Both the position numbers and the translations under genes were made by a program. This document shows positions 20,691-49,976 of a stretch of DNA of 64,000 nucleotides, in pieces; the first letter of the stretch is position 1, and each line of letters starts with the position of its first letter. Origin of the DNA: Pestalotiopsis fici W106-1 (taxonomy: Eukaryota; Ascomycota; Sordariomycetes; Amphisphaeriales; Sporocadaceae); assembly GCF_000516985.1 (NCBI RefSeq), contig NW_006917095.1, forward strand, positions 3,360,942 through 3,424,941, in the 5' to 3' direction. A model generated the notes under the pieces. The model did not search any database. It was not told the origin of the DNA and saw nothing but the letters and a program-made list of their open reading frames with translations.

Positions 20691-21560
20691 TTTCGTATTA
20701 TAGCGGAATAATTGGCTGAATACCAGATTTATGATATGAATTGCACTCGTCCAAAATAAACGACGGAAAGCAGGTTCTAGCATGATATCGTAAAGAGTAA
20801 TAAAGGCCAAATGACTTTCTTTAAGCGAGGATAATCCGAGGCTCCAGAATAAGATACAAATACTGACACTTTACTTGTGTCAAAATATTCACCTTTATAT
20901 AATGTATATATGCCCTTGAATTTGACTTATTCCAGACATTAATCCTTTCAACATGAACACTTTCATCTTTGGCTATGCCATCGAACTGGAAGCAAGGTAG
21001 TGGCGACTGGGGTATCGGCTTTAGTGGAATTAAGCGATAAGAATACGCCTGGGGAGACCCCTGAAAACCAGCATGAGTCTAGGTACATTCATCGGGCATT
21101 GTTTCAGCGCCTGGGGGGCAACTGTTCCATACCGTCATTCTTAAGGCAGTCTCGAGGAGCCACGCAAAGATGTTGATGCCTTTGTAAGCCTTCTTTGGGA
21201 TCACACGTGCTTATTTTTTTGGGGCACTTTCGTTTCTCTACGTCTTTCATCTGTATGCATGTACCCAAAACACGATAAACAGTTCCGAACATCTTGTGGC
21301 GTTTGGCGCATATCGGGGCAGTTGTTCTAGCTTAATCCGTTACCGACTGCTCATTGACAACACGGGCGTCTCAACGACTCTGTGTTCATACCTTCGATCC
21401 ACTACCGCAAACGCATATAGAGGTCGTGCCAGCTCGTCACGGGGCTCCCAAAGCTCCAGCCGTCGTTCCTAGATCGTGGATTCAAATCCGAGAATCCCTC
21501 GAGGCAGTACCTGCGAAAGACCCCGCCACCCACACTTACACAATAGACAGACGCATAGAC
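20691..21560. other. Intergenic region upstream of the sacsin-like gene
   Basis: An open frame continues upstream of the chosen start back to a non-ATG codon at 21354. It has no upstream ATG and no recognised domain, so I treat it as leader. Nothing else was seen. Confidence 0.45.
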
Positions 21561-24500
21561 ATGGATTATGGTAAGCTTCGAGCTGCCGCACTCAGCCATG
21601 GCGAGGACGAGGAAGCTGTCACGGTGGATACCAGAGCCTTGATAGACAAGGTGCTTGCAAGATACTCTGGAGAGTGGACAACGTTGAGAGAGCTCATCCA
21701 AAACGCCGCCGATGCACAAGCAACTACTGTCAAGATCAAATGGGAGACACTGCCCTCGACACAGGTGCCTCTTCCGACGAGTCCTGACCGGTCCGAAATA
21801 CTGAAGCATGTATTGCAACATCATACTCTGCGGCGGCTGGTAGTCTCGAATAATGGCCAGCCCTTTACAAAGACCGACTGGGGAAGACTGAAGAGGATCG
21901 CCGAGGGAAACCCAGACGAGACCAAGATTGGTGCGTTCGGTGTTGGATTCTACAGTGTATTCGCCGACTGCGAGGAACCATTTATCAGCTCGGGGAGTGA
22001 GGCCATGGCATTTTACTGGAAAGGAAACGCTCTATTCACAAGAAAGCTACTGCTTGACGAGGACCAAAAGACCAATGATACTGCATTTGTCCTCGACTAT
22101 AGAAACTCAACAACAACGCTGCCGAACCTACTGTCTGTCGGTCAGTTTCTTGCGACAAGTCTGACATTCGTCGCTCTTCAACACATAGAATTCTGGATCG
22201 ATGACTACCAAGTCCTTTCCCTGCATAAGAAGACAAGCCCAAGTGTCGACGTCACTCTGCATAGAGATATTGAAACAACCACCAAGGATCGGCTTATGAA
22301 GATTCAGAAGGTTGAGAGGGCCAGTGCCCAGATCGATGCTTCGTACATGAGTGCCCTTGGATGGAAGCCTCCGGTTGCCTCTAGATCGAACGAGTCCTAT
22401 GGCATGGGAAATACCGAGGTTCCATCCTTGAGGAGCTTTTTCTCTAGGCTGACGGCCAACACAGCAACATCCAAGGCCAGGAAAGTTGCCAAGGAGGAGA
22501 AGGCTGTCCAGGATGCCATATCGGAAGATATCACTGCAGTCTCCAACTCGAGTATCTTCCTCAGAGTTACTACAGCAAGTATCAAGACCTCGGTTACGGC
22601 CAGCTTCTCCGCCGAACTGGAGCGAGCTACCAAGAAACCTCCCCCCAAGGTCACGAGACTTGCAATTTTGACTTCTTCATACGATGAACTACAAGCGTCT
22701 GAAAGCTCGACACAGTCCGGCGCACTCTCGAAGGCCATTGATGTGTTTGCTTCAGTGTTACCTAGTAAGAAACCTGGCGGTCGTATCTTCATTGGGTTTC
22801 CAACTACACAGACCACTGGTGCGGGTATGCACATATCTGCTCCCTCTGTTATCCCCACCGTAGAACGTGAGGCCATTGATCTGAACGCGCGCTGGGTGAG
22901 GAGCTGGAATATTGAGATGCTGCGAGCAGCGGGTATCATGACGAGGCTGGCCTTTGCCAATGAAATGGACGAGCTTCAGAAAAAGCTTCAAAGGTCTATG
23001 GAACAACCAGGAGCAAAGATCAGCCAGGGGGTGGTGGCTAAGCACATGCCCGAAGCCTTGCACATTCTGAATTCGTTCGCCTTTGGTGAATCTACACCAA
23101 GCGCCCAGGTCTCGCAGATTATTGAGGAGGCTTTTTGGACATCATACAAGAAAGCTCATGTCGAAATTTACAGCACTCGCGGGGTGCGTATGACTACTCA
23201 AGTTCGTCTTGGTTCCGAGGAGCTTACCAAATTTGTTCCTGGCGTTCCGGTTATCCCACCAGAGCTGAAGGATATCTCCTTCGTAAGGAAACTGATCTAC
23301 TATGATTTGCTTTCAGAAATAACCGTCGATGATGTCAGACAGGAGCTGTCAGAATATCCGATGAATAAAGACCAACTGATGGCGTTCCTTCAATGGGCAA
23401 GCAGAAAAGCTGCCCGAGAGGAGCTCAGTCCTACCGACAGAGATCGTCTTCTTGACGCAGCAATCGCGACTCTAGGCGACCAAAGCAACCAGGGTGGGAT
23501 TCTGACTCTGGGAAGCATCAAGACCTTTATCATCCCCAGCAAAATCCCCGCAGGTCTGCCAGTACCACCAACGACGATTCCTTTCGAGTTCACCAAGCAG
23601 ATCAACATCAATGATCTTCGAGCTCTGGGTTGGGAGTCTTTGGAGATTGTCCCATGGCTTCGATTCTTACTGGAAACAAGATCCAGTCGGCCAGACAGCG
23701 AAGACTTTACCAAAACTCCCGACTTTGCAGTGCAAGTTTTGACAGTTCTTTCCAAAGGCTGGGATGGTCTTAGTCCCAGCTCAAAGGACACAGTCGTATC
23801 TCTGCTGAAAGCAAATACTGTCATGCCAACCAAACTTGGCATGAGGAAGCCTGCCGACTCCTTCTTCCCTACTGTGAAACTATTTGACGACCTGCCAACA
23901 ATATCTCAGCAATGTTCTGGACTCCGGGACAAATTCCTGACGGCTTTGGGCGTTCGAAAGACAGTTGCACTTGAGATAATCTTCCAGCGTTTGCTCAACC
24001 CGTCAGAGGGACAGGCGCAGTGGAGTCATGTTGAACTGATCAAGTACTTGGCTTCAGTCCGTGCAGACATACCCAATGATGATCTCAAGAAACTCAAAAG
24101 TTCACGAATCTGCCCAGCCGAGGCTGGCCCGCCAGGGCTTGAGTTCTCAAAGCCAAGCAGCCAACTTTATAGCGTGTCTGAATTACTTGAACCCAATGCA
24201 GCGTTGAGGCCGCTCGGTGTCAAGATCCTACAGTGGCCTGGGCTATACCGTGCCAGCTCTGCAGAAGGCAAATTCCTTACGGCACTGGGCTTGAGAGCAT
24301 ATCCTTCGGCTCCTGAACTAGTTGAGCTGATGTGTTCATCTGACAAAGAACTCCGCAATCACGCCATGCAGTATTTTGTCTCCAACCATGTCACCAATAG
24401 ATATGGGTTGTTTGACATTGGCTCCTGCGGGAAAGGCTTTCTTCCATTGGAAGGGAAAGATGGGAATCTTGTCTCTCCAGGGAGCTGCTACACCAATGAA

Positions 24501-26774
24501 GCTGCAGCGGTCCTGGGCTTCAATATCCTAAGAAGAGATTTGCATGAGCATGCGCTCAAATTTGGCGTCAAGAGAGATCCGCCGATTCAAGATTGCGTGA
24601 ACCGCCTGCTCAGAAACATCCCTCAGACGTCGCAAGCAGCCATCACGGTTTTCAACTACTTTGCGACACGCGTCAATGAATTGGATAGAAGCATCATTTC
24701 TCGTTTGCAGGAAACGCCGATAGTGCCAGTGGTCCGTCGGAAGCTACAATCGGATGTATCAGAAAAATCCAGTAACAGTCTTGTTTCCCACATCAGCCCG
24801 AGGAATTGTTATCTTGGCAGTTCGACTACGTACGGTGATATCTTTGACTTTGTTGATTTCGGCCAGCAGGCAAACTCTTTCTTGTTTAGTCTTGGGGCCA
24901 AGAGCGAGCCCACCAAGCTGGAGATTGCTCATATGGCAGCTGGCGAGCCAGCCCGCCTGCTTAGCGTTTTCCAGAGCTCGGAGAAGTATCTGAATCTGCT
25001 GAGGTCCTTGGCTGAGGATGCTCACACTCTGAAACGAGACAAGGAGCTGTGGCGAAAGCTGAGGACGTCTCGATTCTTGCTCGCATTCAAGGAAATGCCT
25101 ACGGGTAAAGGCAACGCATCCGACCTGGACGAGGATGATGTACCTGTCAGACAGTATCAGCTGGCCTCGCCGGATCAGATTGTGATCCTCGACGACTATA
25201 TAAGCTATCGACTGTTCAAGGATGGCCTTCTTTGTGCGCCTGAAGAAGAGGCCCTAGAAGCATTCTACGTTGCACTCGGCTCTCAAAACCTTGGTAGCCT
25301 TGTCACAGACGACTTGAGGGTTGGTGGCCACAGCGAGAGCCAGGATGGTGCAGTCTGGCTGCGGAAACATGTTATTGAAAGGTCCAAGATCTTTGTCCAC
25401 GAATATTCCAAGCATGCACGCGATCCTATCAAGCATGACATCAGATGGCTCGAGAAGAACCTGGTCGTTGAGGTCGTAAGATCTCTTGCTCTGCGTCGCA
25501 CTCTCCGGGGCCATGGACAGCCCAACACGGAGAAGAAGTCTGCTGCCGCGGCCATGACAAACAAGGGTCTTGTTCTCTATGTTGCATCAGACCGACCGCG
25601 CCCTGACATGTATCAAGTTGGCCATGCCATCTGCCAGCATATTCTCCATCGTCCATCTCAACAGGCCTACACGTTTTTCGAACCCTTTCTGAAACTAGAT
25701 TTGCTTGATCTGCGTTCCCGCGGATACAATGTTGACCGCATTCTCCGCGTGAAGGCAGCAGAAGCCAGGATAGCAGAGGAAGAAAAGCGCAAGGCGTTGG
25801 AGGCTGAACAAGCAAGATTGCGAGAAGAGGCCCAACAACGTGCCCGAACGCAGTCAACTGCAGAGCAGGCACCGACTCAGCGTCCATCAACACCACAAGA
25901 GAGGCCTAGGATGCCAGTAATGCCAGGCTCCTTTGACAGCCCAGAGGAACGTACTACGCCACAGGCCCAAGCTCCCGCCCCTGACCTTCCTCAATGGGGA
26001 CGTAATTTGTTCTCTAACATTCAGAAGCGATTGGGATTAGAGGAAGGCCGTGCTAGTGGTGATGGGTCATCGGTCGACGACAGGGGCAAAATCGAGGAAA
26101 GAGGGAAAAATACCAAGAGCTCTATTCAGCAGAGCGGCCTGTCAAATGTTCAAGACAATTTGCAGGCGGCTGTCAATTCTACGAGGCCTTTCAGCTCCTC
26201 CACCTTGTTCAGCCCGCCTGTCACTCAAGATGTCCAGGAACAGGCCACCTACTGTGACAATATACCCCAGCAGGATCTCGAACTCGCTGCCGAGGCTGCC
26301 AATGGCATGCCAGTTTTCCTCATGAGAAATCTCAACATGAATGCGCAGCAGTTCATCTCGCAGAATCATGAGAATATCAATACGTTTGCTGTTCTCATTC
26401 GTCATGTTGGCGAAGTTTACTCGGTAAAAGCTAAAGCGCTCCACATGTTCTATGACGATTCGGGCACGACGATCGCCTTCAACAGTGGAGGCAGCATCTT
26501 CTGCAATCTGCGATATTTCAACCAACTACACGCAGCGCACATGACAGACGGGCAAAAGCAGGCGGAAGCAGCTATTTGGTGGTGGGTTGTTCTTGCTCAT
26601 GAGCTGGCGCACAATATCGAGAAGCAGCATAATGCTCAGCACAGCTTTTATACCGAGAGCTTCATTCAGCAGTATTTTCCAAAGATGATGCTCAAGGCGG
26701 ATGCTCTATCACCAGCAGCACGATCGCTAACAACAACCCCAAGCAGTCAGCCGCCACCATATAGTAAGCATTAG
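21561..26774 (+). CDS. Giant sacsin-like HATPase protein (DUF3684-type) with C-terminal HELAH motif
   Basis: One exon of 1737 residues from MDYGKLRAAAL. The N-terminal GHKL ATPase motifs are visible: N-box LRELIQNAADAQ (about residues 42-53), LVVSNNGQPF in the place of the usual D-x-G-x-G box, then EGNPDETKIGAFGVGFYS (about 115-131). Sacsin and fungal DUF3684 proteins share this ATP-binding module. A long helical middle region follows, with a charged coiled stretch near residues 1390-1440 and a disordered Pro/Gln linker. The C-terminus carries WWVVLAHELAHNIEKQH (about 1674-1690), an HExxH motif with a further His at +10. The function of the fungal family is unknown; sacsin itself is a chaperone-like protein. 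In-frame sequence upstream of 21561 is not included because it lacks an ATG. Confidence 0.85.
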   Translation: MDYGKLRAAALSHGEDEEAVTVDTRALIDKVLARYSGEWTTLRELIQNAADAQATTVKIKWETLPSTQVPLPTSPDRSEILKHVLQHHTLRRLVVSNNGQPFTKTDWGRLKRIAEGNPDETKIGAFGVGFYSVFADCEEPFISSGSEAMAFYWKGNALFTRKLLLDEDQKTNDTAFVLDYRNSTTTLPNLLSVGQFLATSLTFVALQHIEFWIDDYQVLSLHKKTSPSVDVTLHRDIETTTKDRLMKIQKVERASAQIDASYMSALGWKPPVASRSNESYGMGNTEVPSLRSFFSRLTANTATSKARKVAKEEKAVQDAISEDITAVSNSSIFLRVTTASIKTSVTASFSAELERATKKPPPKVTRLAILTSSYDELQASESSTQSGALSKAIDVFASVLPSKKPGGRIFIGFPTTQTTGAGMHISAPSVIPTVEREAIDLNARWVRSWNIEMLRAAGIMTRLAFANEMDELQKKLQRSMEQPGAKISQGVVAKHMPEALHILNSFAFGESTPSAQVSQIIEEAFWTSYKKAHVEIYSTRGVRMTTQVRLGSEELTKFVPGVPVIPPELKDISFVRKLIYYDLLSEITVDDVRQELSEYPMNKDQLMAFLQWASRKAAREELSPTDRDRLLDAAIATLGDQSNQGGILTLGSIKTFIIPSKIPAGLPVPPTTIPFEFTKQININDLRALGWESLEIVPWLRFLLETRSSRPDSEDFTKTPDFAVQVLTVLSKGWDGLSPSSKDTVVSLLKANTVMPTKLGMRKPADSFFPTVKLFDDLPTISQQCSGLRDKFLTALGVRKTVALEIIFQRLLNPSEGQAQWSHVELIKYLASVRADIPNDDLKKLKSSRICPAEAGPPGLEFSKPSSQLYSVSELLEPNAALRPLGVKILQWPGLYRASSAEGKFLTALGLRAYPSAPELVELMCSSDKELRNHAMQYFVSNHVTNRYGLFDIGSCGKGFLPLEGKDGNLVSPGSCYTNEAAAVLGFNILRRDLHEHALKFGVKRDPPIQDCVNRLLRNIPQTSQAAITVFNYFATRVNELDRSIISRLQETPIVPVVRRKLQSDVSEKSSNSLVSHISPRNCYLGSSTTYGDIFDFVDFGQQANSFLFSLGAKSEPTKLEIAHMAAGEPARLLSVFQSSEKYLNLLRSLAEDAHTLKRDKELWRKLRTSRFLLAFKEMPTGKGNASDLDEDDVPVRQYQLASPDQIVILDDYISYRLFKDGLLCAPEEEALEAFYVALGSQNLGSLVTDDLRVGGHSESQDGAVWLRKHVIERSKIFVHEYSKHARDPIKHDIRWLEKNLVVEVVRSLALRRTLRGHGQPNTEKKSAAAAMTNKGLVLYVASDRPRPDMYQVGHAICQHILHRPSQQAYTFFEPFLKLDLLDLRSRGYNVDRILRVKAAEARIAEEEKRKALEAEQARLREEAQQRARTQSTAEQAPTQRPSTPQERPRMPVMPGSFDSPEERTTPQAQAPAPDLPQWGRNLFSNIQKRLGLEEGRASGDGSSVDDRGKIEERGKNTKSSIQQSGLSNVQDNLQAAVNSTRPFSSSTLFSPPVTQDVQEQATYCDNIPQQDLELAAEAANGMPVFLMRNLNMNAQQFISQNHENINTFAVLIRHVGEVYSVKAKALHMFYDDSGTTIAFNSGGSIFCNLRYFNQLHAAHMTDGQKQAEAAIWWWVVLAHELAHNIEKQHNAQHSFYTESFIQQYFPKMMLKADALSPAARSLTTTPSSQPPPYSKH

Positions 26775-34200: not shown

Positions 34201-35119
34201 ACAGGCCCTGTAAATATGACAAATGAAAAGTGCCCCACGAAAAAAGCATGCACCCCAGTGAGCGTCAAGCATTAGAAATCTCATGGCATACGGGTTTGTA
34301 GAGAGAGAGAGAGCAAAGATGTGATGCATAACGGTTTCTGGAAGCAACGAGCAGATGCCGGACGACGGCGGAAAAATAGCTTCAGTCACAATTTCGTAAT
34401 CTTACGTTACGGCCACAACTGCGCACTCACTGTACCCGCGCAAGAAGCAGAGAATAGTTGGTTGGTTGGCTGGCTGGTGGTGGTAAGAATTTTGGGACAA
34501 GAGTCATCGGCATACCCAAAACAATTGCACCGCCTGTCTTACGCTCAGCCCTATCCCTGGCAGAGCCCGCAGCCCCCAACCAAATTTAGACCTTCTCTGC
34601 ACCTGCGTGGTCCTTCCATGCGGCGCTACCAACTCTCTTGTAAGACATGAAATGTATGGTCCGTCCTGGACTGGTGGGTATGCTGCGGCCCAGGACTACT
34701 TTCCATATACTCCTTTCTGTCTGTCCTTTCCCAAGGACCTGTCATGTACTACTATCTAGGGTATGCAGATAGAATATGACACCCCAAAATTGGTACCACA
34801 TTCTATCCTTGGCTCTTCTCCAAGTTGTGCTTTACTTGGAACGCTCGAGGCATTCCCATTGGCCCATCTCGTATAGTCACCCCTCGAGGCACCCCTACGC
34901 CCACGTTTTGCGGCTCCAGTTGCCGGTGCATGGATGACGGGACCTGCTGCTGAGAAGAGAGAGAGAGGGAGGCTGTAAGTCTCAGGCACCGCTGTGTTCT
35001 CATGGCAATCAAGGACCCCGTCTGGTCGGCGGGTGGGTGGGTGTGAAGGCCCGGACCTCGCGTGGCATATTCCTATTCATGTAAAGGCCCAGCCCAGTCC
35101 AGTGTTCGACACACAAGTC

Positions 35120-35126
35120 TATATAA
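35120..35126 (+). promoter_or_regulatory. TATA box of the small repeat-protein gene
   Basis: TATATAA stands 250 bases upstream of the ATG at 35377. It is followed by a CA-rich, G-poor leader (about 35160-35376, rich in CATCAAC and CAACA), the composition usual for 5' leaders of abundant fungal transcripts. Spacing implies transcription starting near 35150. The start point is inferred. Confidence 0.6.
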
Positions 35127-35376
35127 GTCCATGAGAGTTCCTGATGTTTGAGGCCATTCTCAGAACCATCATTCACCATCTTCAACAAACACTACATCAA
35201 CTACATCAACATCAACAACACCAGCAATCTAATCATCTTTCCTCTCAAGCAATTTGCTCAACTACCAAAACATTATATATCAACCATCTTGAAACATATA
35301 CTTGCTCAAGTCTCAATCTACTCCAAAACACTTTCATCATAATCGAACAAGTCAAACCTCACTTTTAAATATCACA

Positions 35377-35589
35377 ATGGCCGCTTTCGCTTTCACCAAC
35401 TGCCCCACTGCCGCCGTCTTTGGCCGCTCTGGTTACAACAAGGACGGTGACGATGACAAGGACGAGCAAAAGTTGTTTGGCCGTTCTGGCTACAACAAGG
35501 ATGGCGACAATGACGACGATGACAAGAAGAACTTTGGCCGATCCGGCTACAACAAGGGCGGCAAGAACGATGACGACGAGGAGCAATAA
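35377..35589 (+). CDS. Small acidic protein with three FGRSGYNK repeats, function unknown
   Basis: A 70-residue protein on one exon with a good start context (CACAATGGCC). After MAAFAFTNCPTAAV come three units of 19, 19 and 18 residues (57-base period in DNA: 35419-35475, 35476-35532, 35533-35586). Each begins with the identical octapeptide FGRSGYNK and ends with an acidic D/K/E/N-rich spacer. The repeats vary at synonymous positions (CGC/CGT/CGA for Arg, TCT/TCC for Ser, GGT/GGC for Gly) while the octapeptide stays exact, which points to selection on the peptide. No signal peptide, membrane segment or dibasic Kex2-type spacing is apparent. Glycine is about 14 percent and charge is high, resembling hydrophilin-like disordered stress proteins, but I do not recognise the family. 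Confidence 0.8.
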   Translation: MAAFAFTNCPTAAVFGRSGYNKDGDDDKDEQKLFGRSGYNKDGDNDDDDKKNFGRSGYNKGGKNDDDEEQ

Positions 35590-36023
35590 ACGGCCAACAT
35601 GAGCCTGCATTTGCATTTAGTCGCCATTGGCCATCACAGTTGAGCACGATATGATTTCGGCACAACTCTTGTACCAACCACCTGTATCACCAGTACCACC
35701 AAGTACCACCAACACATCCCTTTTCCTTTGTGGCATTAGATCGGCGTCGGAGAATGGCTTCGTCTTCAAAACTGTACGATAGGACTGGTGTATGATGAGT
35801 GTACGATCACCAAGAAAGAAGAACTGGATTCCGGCAACGGCAAAGGGATAGACTGTACCACCAACATGGCAATATAGAGGGCGCTTGGCGAAAAGGTTGG
35901 ATATACAGGATATACTGGATTAGACATTTGTACAATTTTGGGTATAGATTGTACTTTTATTGGCTTGTTGTTTTAGCTGTACTATTATCCCCGGGGCGTT
36001 CCGGTTTTACTTTTACAATCCAA
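35590..36023. other. Intergenic region between convergent genes
   Basis: Contains the 3' region of the repeat-protein gene, with ACCACC(AA)-type short repeats near 35675-35710. Nothing else was seen. Confidence 0.45.
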
Positions 36024-37851
36024 TCATTTTCCTACACAAAATCTATATCGCCATTAGCATCAGGACTTGACATCGTTGATTGTATAGAACTTACTTTTCA
36101 AAGATGACGCCCAATACCTCTTCAATATCGCCAGCTTCACTACGACCAGTAATGCGAGCCAAGGTGCCCGCGGCATAGCGGAGCTCCTCGGCAGCAATCA
36201 CAAAGTTGAGCTCATCAAAAGCGTCTTCTGATGTGGTATTGGCAATATAATTCTCCAAATGTTCACGGCATTGTGCCAATAGTTGTCTTTGACGCTCAGT
36301 AACGCCGTGGAGATCTTGCTGATTAGTGGGCAGCGTCGTCATGTCTTTGAAAAGGCAACTCAGCCGGTCAGCTACCGCATGGACACCACCGGGATCCTTT
36401 GCATCGCCGAGCTTGTTCTGAGCATCTCTGCAGGAAACCAAGACGGGGTTTAGAGCTGAATCCTGGTTCAGCTCGCCCAAGACAGAGGACCGGAACTTTT
36501 CGAGGAGTTGTTTGAGCTGCTCCTCTGGCAGGACATCGCGCTTGTTGACTACAAGAAAGCCCTTTCCAACAGTTGAAAGCAGGTCAAGCGTTTGCGCGTC
36601 ATAGTTGAGATGAAACTTGCTAGACGAGTCTTGCTCAACAGAGACCAACACCACCACTATATCCGACTCCAATGCCTTGGCCCTGGCCCGCCGAATCCCC
36701 TCTTGCTCGACCAAGCCAATGGGGGCGTCGTCGTTGCTGGCACTTCTAAACCCAGCAGTATCGGCAAATGTACACAGATAGCCGCGGATATCCAGGTGAG
36801 CTTCAACAATATCGCGAGTGGTCCCTGCTTCGCCGGACACGATGGACGCCTCTCTTCCAACGATTTGATTCATGAGAGAGCTTTTGCCCACGTTTGGAGG
36901 ACCAAGCAAAGCAATGCGGATGCCATTTCTGAGAAGCTCTGTGCGCTGACTGGCATTTTCATGCACATCAATGCTGGCGAGTATGTCTCGGACCTGTCGT
37001 GTAACATTTTCGAGCAAATCTATGGGCGTCTCGTCAAAGTGCTGATCTTCCGAAAAGTCAATGATGGCCTCGACCTCGGCTCTGGCCTCAAGCAGTTCTT
37101 GGCGCCATGTCTCGTAGGTTTTCCCCAAGGAGCCCGAGGAACCTCGGACAGCTGCGCGGCGCTGCTGTTCGGTTTCGGCAGAAAGCGTGTCACTCAGAGA
37201 CTCCACCTGAGCAAGGTCGAGGCGATCATTAATGAAGGCTCGCTTTGTGAACTCGCCAGGCTCAGCATAACGAATAGTGCCGGGGCAAGATGCCGGAATG
37301 GCGGAGAGCACAGCCTTCACCGTGGCATTTCCTCCATGCACGTGCAGTTCGAGCACGTCTTCGCCAGTGACAGTTTTTGGCGCTGGGAGGTAGAGGACAA
37401 CGGCATCCGAATCCAACACGACGGTCTGGTCATGGTCAGGTTGGTACAATGTCCTTACTCCGGCAAACCTAGGTTTTGGGATAGGTCTAGTTGGGCATAG
37501 ACCGTCATATATCTGATGTCGTTGTTAACAATAGCGAGCGAGACCACAAAGTAAAGATGGTCAAGGTACCCTTTTGCATAATGGGCCGGAGACTCGAATG
37601 ACAGCAATGCCAGCTTTGCCTTGGGCCGAGGACAAGGCATATATTGTGTCGCTTCGATTACCAGCAGTAAAAAACGTCCTACGAGATCCAACAAACGGCT
37701 TGCATGGCGTCGATGTCGTTTTATTAGGCCATTCTTTGCAGTGTATGCGGGCTTGAAATGAAGCGTTCCTGACGGCAGGGACAGCCAAGCCCCAGCTACG
37801 GCAGAGCGGTCGGCTTGAGCTTCGATTTTTTGTAAGGTACCGGCGAAGCAT
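36024..37851 (-). CDS. MSS1: Mitochondrial tRNA modification GTPase (MnmE/TrmE, GTPBP3 family)
   Basis: Exons read leftward: 37851-37570, 37512-36095, 36042-36024; 572 residues. An Arg/Ser-rich presequence (about residues 1-65) precedes DTIYALSSAQGKAGIAVIRV, the MnmE N-terminal domain. The GTPase motifs are G1 GPPNVGKSS, G2 TTRD, G3 DTAGF and G4 NKRD. The last exon, 19 bases, completes the diagnostic C-terminal FCxGK (here FCVGK), whose Cys is essential in the family. With Mto1 it makes the wobble-uridine 5-modification of mitochondrial tRNAs. Recovery of FCVGK by splicing 36043-36094 confirms the model. Confidence 0.95.
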
Positions 37852-38562: not shown

Positions 38563-39724
38563 ATGGCGTCGGACGAGATCGTCTGGCAGATTATCAACCA
38601 GCAATTCGTACGCATATGCGAAAGCCCGTCTGCCGTAGCCTCTACTGACCTTTGCAACAACAGTGCTCTTTCAAGCTCAAGACGACCAAGAACCAGAACT
38701 TCTGCAGAAATGAATATAACGTGACGGGATTGTGCAATCGGCAATCATGCGTAAGTCCCTTCCAGAACAGGTAGACAGGCATGATCACATACACAAATGC
38801 TGACTGGCATCATTAGCCACTAGCCAACTCCAGATATGCAACTGTGCGCGCACACCCTACCAAGGGCACGCTGTACCTCTACATGAAGACCATGTGAGTT
38901 GTCCATGGCTTGCAAAGTACAAACGGGGCCGATCTGCTAACTTGCTTTCTTCTAGTGAGCGAGCGCATCAACCCTCCAAGCTCTGGGAAAGGAGAAAGCT
39001 CTCTGCCAACTACCAGACGGCTTTGAAACAACTGGACGAGTGGCTGATCTACTGGCCCAACTTCTTGATTCACAAGGCAAAGCAAAGGCTCACCCGACTC
39101 ACGCAAGTTGCCATACGCATGCGACGAATCGCGAAAGAGGAAGCTCGACTCGGCGAAAAGGTTGTACCCAAGCTTGCTCCCAAGATCCGCAAGAGAGAAG
39201 CGACGCGCGAGCGCAAGGCCGAGGCTGCTGCCAAACTTGAACGCACAATCGAGCGAGAACTTTTGCAGAGATTACGAGAGGGTGCTTATGGCGATCAACC
39301 CCTCAACGTCAGCGAGAACATCTGGAAGAAGGTTCTCAACGAGATGGAGCGCGAGGGTGAGGGAACAAGAGACAAGGACATGGACAAGGGCATTGCCTCG
39401 GACGACGAGGAGGAGAACGAGTACGAGGAAGAAGAGGAGGAAGAGGACGGTGCTGTCGAGTACGTCAGTGATCTTGAGGAAAGCGACGATGATCTCGAGG
39501 ACATTGAAGACTGGCTCGGCAGCGATCAGGAATCCGAAGACGATGAAGAGTCTGCGAGCGACGACAGCGAGGATGAGGAGGAGCAGCCTGCCAAGAAGCC
39601 GGATGCTGGTGGCAAGAGGAAACGCGAAGCTCCTGCTCGCAAGCCCAAGAAGGGAGTCAAGAGAAGACGGGAGATTGAGCACGAGGTTGAGATGGAACCC
39701 CGTGCCCGCGAGCTGGCCTTCTAA
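38563..39724 (+). CDS. MAK16: Ribosome biogenesis protein Mak16
   Basis: Exons 38563-38607, 38664-38750, 38817-38893 and 38956-39724; 325 residues, close to yeast Mak16. The start [19 protein letters not shown], then [20 protein letters not shown] and [19 protein letters not shown] are family hallmarks and cross all three introns in frame. The conserved Cys residues here are thought to bind metal. The C-terminal third is strongly acidic and ends in a basic nuclear-signal-like cluster ([19 protein letters not shown]). Mak16 acts with Rpf1 in early 60S subunit assembly in the nucleolus. Confidence 0.96.
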
Positions 39725-49169: not shown

Positions 49170-49976
49170 CTATCGGCCAGGACTGAGAGGCCGATTGAAA
49201 CCTCCCACGCGATTCATGTACTGGCGATATTCGGTTTTCTTCTCCTTCCTGACGCCTCCAACGTTGTTGCCCACAACTTTGGTGTTCTTGGTTGTGCCGA
49301 ATCCTCCGAATCCCATCATTGCCTGCATGGCAGCCAAGCCATCGTCAACCTCGACTTCCTCTTCTTCTTCGTCCACTTCACCGTCTTCATCCATGGCATC
49401 ACCCCTGTCTTCACTGGTTGCCCTCCCACGGCTCTCATCCTCTCTGCTAGGACGCGGTACATCCTCGTCGTTCTTACCGACGCGGAATGATAGTGGGGTG
49501 TTCCGATCATTCTTGGGACGTGACGGGAGAGGAGACTCGTGTTCCGAACGCAGATCTTTTCTCGAGGTGGCATCTCTCGCTGTTTCTTTGCCAAACCGCA
49601 GGTCTTCAGCATCTCTGCTGTCGTGCCGCGACTCCTGCTCGCGGTCATCGCGGCGTCGCCTGTCTGAGTCTCTGTCTCGGTCCCGATCCCTGTCACCATG
49701 CTCGCGGTCGCGGTCTCGGTCTCGGCCGTGGCCTCGCTCTCTGTCTCTGTCGCGATACCTGTCGGAGGGCGCATCTCCACGGTCGCGTGCGCCTCCACGA
49801 TCACGGTCGCGTCTGTCGCTTCTTCCTGGTGATCCTGATCTTGACCTGTGCCTGTGGCTTCTGTCGTCTCTTCTTCTATCATCTCTTCGGTCGTCTCTGC
49901 GGTCGCTGCGTCTATCATAGTCTCGTCTTCTGTCGTAGTCACGATCGCGCGGTCCGCGCCCTCCGCGTCGCTCCAT
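49170..49976 (-). CDS. SNRNP27-like U4/U6.U5 tri-snRNP protein with RD/RS-rich N-terminus
   Basis: Intronless, 268 residues. The first about 130 residues are Arg-Asp and Arg-Ser dipeptides (MERRGGRGPRDRDYDRRRDY onwards). The C-terminal 55 residues form the conserved SNRNP27 domain: AAMQAMMGFGGFGTT, KNTKVVGNNVGG and KTEYRQYMNRVGGFNRP. In human this protein belongs to the tri-snRNP and contacts U6 near the 5' splice site. An acidic linker (DEDGEVDEEEEEVEVDD) separates the halves. Confidence 0.9.
   Translation of the reverse strand: MERRGGRGPRDRDYDRRRDYDRRSDRRDDRRDDRRRDDRSHRHRSRSGSPGRSDRRDRDRGGARDRGDAPSDRYRDRDRERGHGRDRDRDREHGDRDRDRDRDSDRRRRDDREQESRHDSRDAEDLRFGKETARDATSRKDLRSEHESPLPSRPKNDRNTPLSFRVGKNDEDVPRPSREDESRGRATSEDRGDAMDEDGEVDEEEEEVEVDDGLAAMQAMMGFGGFGTTKNTKVVGNNVGGVRKEKKTEYRQYMNRVGGFNRPLSPGR

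What the first reader, a model, noticed from the sequence alone, without database searches (positions are those of the whole stretch)
35377..35589. Small protein with three exact FGRSGYNK repeats under apparent peptide-level selection
The octapeptide is identical in all three 57-base units although codons differ at Arg, Ser and Gly, so recent duplication alone does not explain the identity. Acidic spacers alternate with the basic/aromatic cores. There is no signal peptide or dibasic cleavage pattern, so a secreted Kex2-processed peptide precursor looks unlikely. An abundant hydrophilin-like protein or a cytosolic multivalent peptide is more likely. I do not know a described family with this motif.
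Basis: partly seen in the sequence, partly recalled or inferred. Interest (0 to 1): 0.75.

Follow-up and report, generated by a model that had tools for sequence, protein, structure and literature searches.

The report
Fungal protein repeating GRSGYN motif
This is a real, uncharacterised fungal gene whose tiny floppy protein carries a few copies of the same six-letter motif, kept almost unchanged among its relatives while the rest drifts, which suggests the motif docks onto a partner that is still unknown.

Summary
Window 35377-35589 (+) is an intact 70-residue ORF with three exact FGRSGYNK copies 57 bases apart; Arg, Ser and Gly codons differ between copies without any amino-acid change. It belongs to a conserved family: searches gave 143, 246 and 225 hits (120 listed each). 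Listed hits with organism names are Sordariomycetes (ten checked; others recalled), essentially all hypothetical. Over 163 listed relatives plus the window, 513 of 518 motif copies (at most 2 mismatches; one linker word dropped) are exactly GRSGYN; linkers are acidic and variable (243 distinct of 344). So the conserved unit is the hexapeptide GRSGYN. The first copy follows exactly 15 residues in 132 of 161. AlphaFold2 gives no confident structure (mean pLDDT 57). A KEX2 peptide precursor does not fit: no evident signal peptide, and 104 of 161 lack any KR or RR. Composition meets the hydrophilin rule in 154 of 161, which cannot explain an exact motif. Best reading: a probably abundant, disordered, cytosolic protein presenting copies of an undescribed linear motif to an unidentified partner (inferred, 0.45). 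Three searches for the motif in the held papers found nothing.

The parts
35377..35589 (+). Single-exon ORF, 70 aa, acidic (pI 4.4) protein, predicted disordered, with three GRSGYN motifs
   Evidence: 163 relatives listed; AlphaFold2 mean pLDDT 57.3, pTM 0.10
35377..35418 (+). N-terminal segment MAAFAFTNCPTAAV; with the aromatic residue that follows, the family keeps 15 residues before the first GRSGYN
   Evidence: first motif after exactly 15 residues in 132 of 161 trimmed proteins; position 2 is Ala in 153 of 161
35419..35442 (+). Motif copy 1: FGRSGYNK (invariant part GRSGYN, 35422-35439)
35443..35475 (+). Acidic linker 1: DGDDDKDEQKL
   Evidence: acidic fraction of linkers 0.39 family-wide
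35476..35499 (+). Motif copy 2: FGRSGYNK
35500..35532 (+). Acidic linker 2: DGDNDDDDKKN
35533..35556 (+). Motif copy 3: FGRSGYNK
35557..35586 (+). Acidic C-terminal tail GGKNDDDEEQ; absent in relatives that end on GRSGYN
   Evidence: 37 of 164 proteins end exactly on GRSGYN
35120..35125 (+). TATA-like box of the probable core promoter
   Evidence: pattern scan; consensus match only
35150..35376 (+). Probable 5' leader: 5% G, no ATG, no GTRNGT splice donor
   Evidence: transcription start is inferred from the TATA-like box, not measured. Folding energy of 35150-35400 is -16.2 kcal/mol, low in absolute terms but not weaker than shuffles (mean -11.7, z -1.56)

Best explanation
The locus is a real gene, probably highly expressed and with a single-exon coding frame, of a family of small disordered proteins spread through the Sordariomycetes. 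Shown: a nearly invariant hexapeptide GRSGYN, in 2-4 copies in 163 of 164 proteins, joined by variable acidic linkers behind a short N-terminal segment of mostly fixed length, without an evident classical secretion signal. Inferred: each GRSGYN is a short linear motif that docks in a pocket of one conserved cytosolic or nuclear partner. Several copies on a flexible acidic string give avidity, so the protein acts as a multivalent ligand (scaffold, competitor or sequestering factor) of that partner. The partner is unknown.
For: Core entropy is 0.00-0.04 bits per position against 1.4-3.7 for flanking positions -6 to +13 over 518 units. Only 5 of 518 units deviate, while 243 of 344 linkers are distinct and range from 6 to 36 residues. 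In Fusarium (7 proteins) and Colletotrichum (7 proteins), chosen by hand, linkers at the same position agree between species (0.70, 0.76) far better than linkers at different positions (0.26, 0.50), so the units duplicated long ago and the cores were held by selection. Core changes in the window are synonymous only. AlphaFold2 on 57 sequences gives no residue above pLDDT 70, as expected of motifs on a string. Codons are biased (AAG 8 of 8, TAC 3 of 3, C-ending two-fold codons 22 of 30 against 376 of 702 in four neighbouring ORFs) and the leader is G-poor and free of ATG, consistent with high expression. The gene has one match in its genome, and outside it no match that reads GRSGYN lies in an open frame longer than 63 residues (codons split by introns not covered), so the motif appears confined to this gene.
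Against: No partner, localisation, transcript or phenotype is known. Word-based searching favours proteins that keep the motif, so conservation is overstated to some degree; even leaving one exact anchor copy per protein out, 349 of 354 remaining units are exact. The relatives are not independent samples (many from Colletotrichum, Fusarium and Xylariales). In Verticillium and Diaporthales linkers are as alike within a protein as between species, so recent duplication or homogenisation contributes there. Strict conservation could also reflect modification, cleavage or contact with nucleic acid rather than docking.
Confidence: 0.45

Rival explanations
1. A hydrophilin-type stress protectant: an abundant, soluble, disordered, glycine-rich protein that protects other molecules during drying, osmotic stress or spore dormancy through bulk composition.
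For: Gly 14.3% and hydrophilicity 1.62 in the window protein; 154 of 161 proteins meet Gly > 6% and hydrophilicity > 1 (rule as quoted in passages of PMC7448490). Low model confidence suggests disorder; codon bias. Two CCCCT stress-element-like sites at 34880 and 34892 (a five-base consensus, with no count of chance matches).
Against: A composition-based role does not require an exact hexapeptide; conservative swaps (Lys for Arg, Thr for Ser, Phe for Tyr, Asp for Asn) are absent among the 5 deviating units.
Confidence: 0.25
2. A precursor of small peptides: GRSGYN-containing peptides are cut out of the repeats and act as signals or are modified, like a RiPP precursor but without the classical secretion route.
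For: Identical cores with variable spacers is the layout of fungal repeat precursors (passages of PMC6339444). 67 of 349 later units have a dibasic pair within five residues upstream.
Against: No common cleavage site flanks the core: the residues before and after it vary and 37 of 164 proteins end on the core. 104 of 161 proteins have no KR or RR. The N-terminal segment is about 15 residues; its best 8-residue hydropathy is below 1.5 (my own threshold) in 92 of 161, but 2.0 or more in 25. No UstYa-type Pfam match (name recalled) among 20 other window ORFs scanned; genes split by introns may be missed.
Confidence: 0.1
3. The motif is the recognition sequence of a modifying enzyme (for example arginine, serine or tyrosine modification), and the protein is its dedicated multi-site substrate or decoy.
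For: Arg, Ser and Tyr are each kept in 517 of 518 units, with both glycines and Asn in 516-518; acidic flanks could aid kinase recognition (inference).
Against: No enzyme identified; the motif matches no modification consensus that I can name from memory.
Confidence: 0.12
4. An RNA-binding or condensate-forming protein in which Arg and Tyr act as stickers between acidic spacers.
For: Regular Arg/Tyr/Gly units in a chain predicted to be disordered.
Against: Known sticker sequences tolerate substitution and register change (recalled, not tested); here the hexapeptide is fixed. Strongly acidic linkers disfavour nucleic-acid binding (inference).
Confidence: 0.05
5. A chance ORF or a recent microsatellite-like expansion with no function.
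For: Repeat array with simple acidic codons.
Against: 163 listed relatives with the same architecture, from at least ten orders of the class.
Confidence: 0.01

Closest known systems
Unnamed hypothetical proteins of Sordariomycetes (e.g. Neurospora crassa GE21DRAFT_8140, Fusarium oxysporum FOXG_19552, Colletotrichum graminicola GLRG_05052, Diaporthe eres SLS64_005099)
   Same: Same family: start MA, about 15-residue lead, exact GRSGYN copies, acidic linkers
   Different: Copy number and linkers vary; these four are named hypothetical or uncharacterised; six locus tags of the family searched in the paper library gave 0 papers
Hydrophilins / LEA-like stress proteins
   Same: Small, predicted disordered, glycine-rich, very hydrophilic
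   Different: Hydrophilins are defined by composition; this family keeps an exact hexapeptide. Stress induction not tested
KEX2-processed repeat proteins (KEPs) and dikaritin-type fungal RiPP precursors
   Same: Repeated identical cores separated by variable spacers
   Different: No evident signal peptide, no KR/RR in 104 of 161 members, no common cleavage flank
Endosulfine/Igo phosphatase inhibitors (short conserved motif in a small disordered protein; recalled as a lead only)
   Same: Small disordered regulator built around one short motif containing Ser-Gly and Tyr (recalled)
   Different: Motif repeated here; no endosulfine family among the 8 Pfam families matched at E <= 0.1 by any of 57 members

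Membership tests
GRSGYN family (defined here) | At least two exact GRSGYN copies in a small protein starting MA or MG | tested here: met
   Window has three; copies are 1 in 1, 2 in 23, 3 in 94 and 4 in 46 of 164 proteins
GRSGYN family (defined here) | First copy about 15 residues from the start Met | tested here: met
   15 in the window and in 132 of 161 trimmed proteins; 3 of 164 had no fitting Met and were left out
KEX2-processed repeat proteins (KEPs) | N-terminal signal peptide | tested here: not met
   Window N terminus: about 15 residues, no basic residue, best 8-residue hydropathy 1.16; below 1.5 in 92 of 161 members, 2.0 or more in 25. No dedicated signal-peptide predictor was available, so this is a rough test
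KEX2-processed repeat proteins (KEPs) | KEX2 sites between repeats | tested here: not met
   Window has no KR or RR (one KK, in linker 2); 104 of 161 members have none; definition read in passages of PMC6339444
KEX2-processed repeat proteins (KEPs) | Internal repeats | tested here: met
Hydrophilins | Glycine above 6% and hydrophilicity index above 1 | tested here: met
   14.3% and 1.62; 154 of 161 proteins; rule from passages of PMC7448490
Hydrophilins | Accumulation under water deficit or hyperosmosis and a protective effect | not testable with these tools
Any Pfam-A family | Match above curated cut-off | tested here: not met
   Window protein: best is FARP at 13.7 bits, cut-off 15.5. 57 members scanned: no family matched by more than 2 at E <= 0.1, best E 0.0042 (cut-offs are not shown there for members other than the first)

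The most novel reading that the evidence does not exclude
GRSGYN is a new class-wide linear motif, carried mainly by this dedicated small protein, that acts as a multivalent intracellular ligand (or as an intracellularly processed or modified peptide) for a conserved fungal receptor or enzyme not yet known to have such a regulator.
Probability: 0.35. Interest if true: 0.75.

Novelty: new variant of a known kind. Interest (0 to 1): 0.52.

Why it matters
A six-residue motif kept in 513 of 518 copies in otherwise drifting, apparently disordered proteins, across a class that includes Neurospora, Fusarium, Colletotrichum and Diaporthe, points to a precise molecular contact for which my searches found no description. 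It is directly testable in Neurospora by peptide pull-down and gene deletion, and would identify either a new regulator or a new protein-peptide interface of filamentous fungi.

Tried and rejected
Secreted KEX2 peptide precursor: rejected on the N terminus and the lack of KR/RR sites. Other genomic uses of the motif: the 18-base pattern gives 11 matches in this genome, three of them in this gene, against 15 for the reversed control; outside this gene the four that read GRSGYN lie in open frames of at most 63 residues and look like chance. Paralogues: none found (one match). Prokaryote or virus homologues: viral contigs and genome-contig scans had 2 and 21 pattern matches but no relative. Literature: FGRSGYN, GRSGYN and RSGYNK gave 0 papers each; GRSGY gave 1, an unrelated viral coat word in a table, seen as one passage; the tag GE21DRAFT_8140 gave 0 and six other locus tags gave 0; 'Sordariomycetes-specific' with 'intrinsically disordered' and 'repeat' gave 0. 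A search for ccg-6 in Neurospora, tried on a vague recollection, gave 8 papers, of which only the listing was seen and nothing used. Searches for KEPs and hydrophilins listed 6 of 11 and 6 of 9 papers; one of each was read in passages. Structure comparison was not run because the model has no confident part (DSSP returned nothing for it). PDB: the single sequence finds nothing up to E 10; the profile finds one chance match at E 0.94. NCBIfam, 4 proteins scanned: weak matches of one relative to collagen-like models at 24 bits and below, against cut-offs of 325 and 400. Antisense ORF 35365-35616 (83 aa): not pursued, because third-position drift between units and the relatives point to the + strand. 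DNA of fungal relatives was not available, so no between-species dN/dS was computed. A first trimming of gene models (130 of 161 at 15 residues) had cut a few members at an inner Met; it was redone (132 of 161) and the conclusions did not change.

Full report
Observation. The ORF at 35377-35589 (+) is intact, starts in the context CACAATGGCC, and encodes 70 residues with FGRSGYNK at residues 15-22, 34-41 and 53-60. The array was found independently by TRF. Between the three cores the Arg codon is CGC, CGT and CGA, Ser is TCT, TCT and TCC, and Gly is GGT, GGC and GGC. That is four minimal changes, all synonymous. With 24-26% of possible single-base changes synonymous, the chance of four out of four is about 0.003-0.005. 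In 2000 shuffles of the residues no word longer than 5 occurred three times, while the real protein has 8.

What organism. The best relative is from a Pestalotiopsis (90% identity, P0001) and the window lies in a 51.7-Mb assembly of 20 contigs, so the source is probably a Pestalotiopsis-like fungus (genus in Amphisphaeriales, Sordariomycetes). Neighbours are ordinary: an MnmE/Mss1-type GTPase (36091-37449 -), MAK16 (38894-39724 +), an Mso1-type ORF, a Rab-GAP and a GH63 glucosidase. Upstream lie a sacsin/DUF3684 ORF, a Med6 ORF and a DEAD/DEAH-box helicase ORF. No enzyme that I would expect in a peptide-precursor cluster matched among the 20 other ORFs scanned; split genes may have been missed, and one search lists further ORFs that were not scanned.

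Family. The first protein search gave 143 hits at E <= 0.001, a profile of 57 gave 246 (only the 7983 candidates sharing most words were scored), and a profile of 25 divergent members gave 225; each lists its best 120. Together 163 distinct relatives were listed. The listed hits that carry an organism name belong to genera that I know as Sordariomycetes. Ten names were checked in the taxonomy and fall in ten orders: Amphisphaeriales, Microascales, Magnaporthales, Cephalothecales, Diaporthales, Sordariales, Coniochaetales, Hypocreales, Glomerellales and Xylariales. No listed hit has a precomputed Pfam domain. The names given are hypothetical, uncharacterised, unnamed or mere identifiers, except P0001, which bears the name MAK16, partial; I take that to be a fused or mislabelled gene model, since MAK16 lies about 3.3 kb downstream here.

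Conservation. Over the 163 relatives plus the window there are 513 exact GRSGYN units. Six other words lie within two mismatches: GGSGYN, GRAGYN, ARSGYN, GRSGHA, ARSGYS and GRSFLN. The last, inside a linker of P0141, I dropped as not a unit, which gives 513 of 518. More degenerate units exist, for example GRNAFN in P0109, GRTPLN in P0163 and GPLGLN in P0097, and were not counted. Core positions have entropy 0.00-0.04 bits, flanking positions 1.4-3.7. Copies per protein: 1 in 1, 2 in 23, 3 in 94, 4 in 46. The searches need shared five-residue words, so a bias towards kept motifs is built in; removing one exact anchor copy per protein leaves 349 of 354 exact. The sequences are related and unevenly sampled, so these are counts, not independent events. 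Linkers are variable (243 distinct of 344, length 6-36) and 330 of 344 are net negative (161 proteins). The residue before the motif is aromatic in 155 of 164 first units but in 140 of 349 later units, and Lys follows in 357 of 481. The selected unit is therefore GRSGYN. The first unit follows exactly 15 residues in 132 of 161 proteins.

Age of the units. In Fusarium and Colletotrichum the linker at a given position resembles the same linker of other species (0.70 and 0.76) more than other linkers of the same protein (0.27 and 0.51). The units are therefore old, and the identity of their cores is not due to recent duplication. In Xylariaceae/Hypoxylaceae the difference is small (0.67 against 0.63; 7 of the 8 proteins chosen were used). 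In Diaporthales (0.79 against 0.78) and Verticillium (0.93 against 0.91) there is almost none, so homogenisation or recent duplication is possible there. These groups were chosen by hand from the listed relatives.

Physical character. pI 4.4, GRAVY -1.62. AlphaFold2 with 57 sequences: mean pLDDT 57.3, pTM 0.10, no residue at 70 or above, no secondary structure reported. Spacings of 12-42 residues between core starts (121 proteins) argue against a solenoid. Expression could not be measured. Codon bias and a 227-nt, 5%-G, ATG-free stretch behind a TATA-like box suggest high expression. The folding energy of the leader region is low in absolute terms (-16.2 kcal/mol for 251 nt) but not weaker than shuffles (z -1.56). 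The reference for codon bias is four neighbouring ORFs only.

Secretion and processing. The short N-terminal segment (about 15 residues, best 8-residue hydropathy 1.16 in the window, below 1.5 in 92 of 161, 2.0 or more in 25) does not look like a classical signal peptide; no dedicated predictor was at hand. KR or RR is absent from 104 of 161 members, and a dibasic pair lies within five residues upstream of 67 of 349 later units. KEPs are defined by signal peptide, internal repeats and KEX2 sites between them (passages of PMC6339444), so I do not file the family there.

Hydrophilin. The composition rule (Gly > 6%, hydrophilicity > 1; passages of PMC7448490) is met by the window and by 154 of 161 proteins. 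The protein may behave like a hydrophilin, but that does not explain the exact motif.

Mechanism. Shown: conserved gene, nearly invariant hexapeptide, acidic variable context without confident structure, mostly fixed N-terminal distance, no classical secretion or KEX2 pattern. Inferred: the hexapeptide is a docking motif for a conserved partner, with multivalency through 2-4 copies. The partner, compartment and biological role are unknown. I give the docking mechanism 0.45, a pure stress protectant 0.25, a modification substrate or decoy 0.12, and a peptide precursor 0.10.

Novelty. No Pfam or NCBIfam match above cut-off for the window protein and no PDB relative, and no paper in the held open-access library containing FGRSGYN, GRSGYN or RSGYNK. 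Subscription papers and supplements were not searched, so prior mention under another description is possible. As a kind of thing, a small disordered protein with repeated linear motifs, it is a variant of a known kind; as a family it appears undescribed.

Noticed in passing
35416-35442: The Neopestalotiopsis sp. 37M gene model (P0005) lacks exactly the nine residues VFGRSGYNK; in this window that 27-nt stretch begins GT and ends AG, so that model probably contains a spurious mini-intron and its copy number is understated. Several other relatives (P0012, P0013, P0023, P0029, P0031) leave the common pattern just after GRSGYNKD.
   Followed up: partly
35150-35376: Leader with 5% G and no ATG; in Fusarium and other relatives the annotated proteins often start far upstream with Ser/Thr/Asn-rich stretches that look like such leaders read in frame (e.g. 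P0130).
   Followed up: partly
35365-35616: Antisense 83-aa hydrophobic ORF covering the whole gene, probably a by-product of GAC/GAT-rich codons read on the other strand.
   Followed up: no
21354-26774: Single 1806-aa ORF with sacsin and DUF3684 domains.
   Followed up: no
49439-49521: tRNA-Lys (ctt) predicted by ARAGORN.
   Followed up: no
1141-1245: AT-rich tandem repeats of 11 and 17 bases.
   Followed up: no
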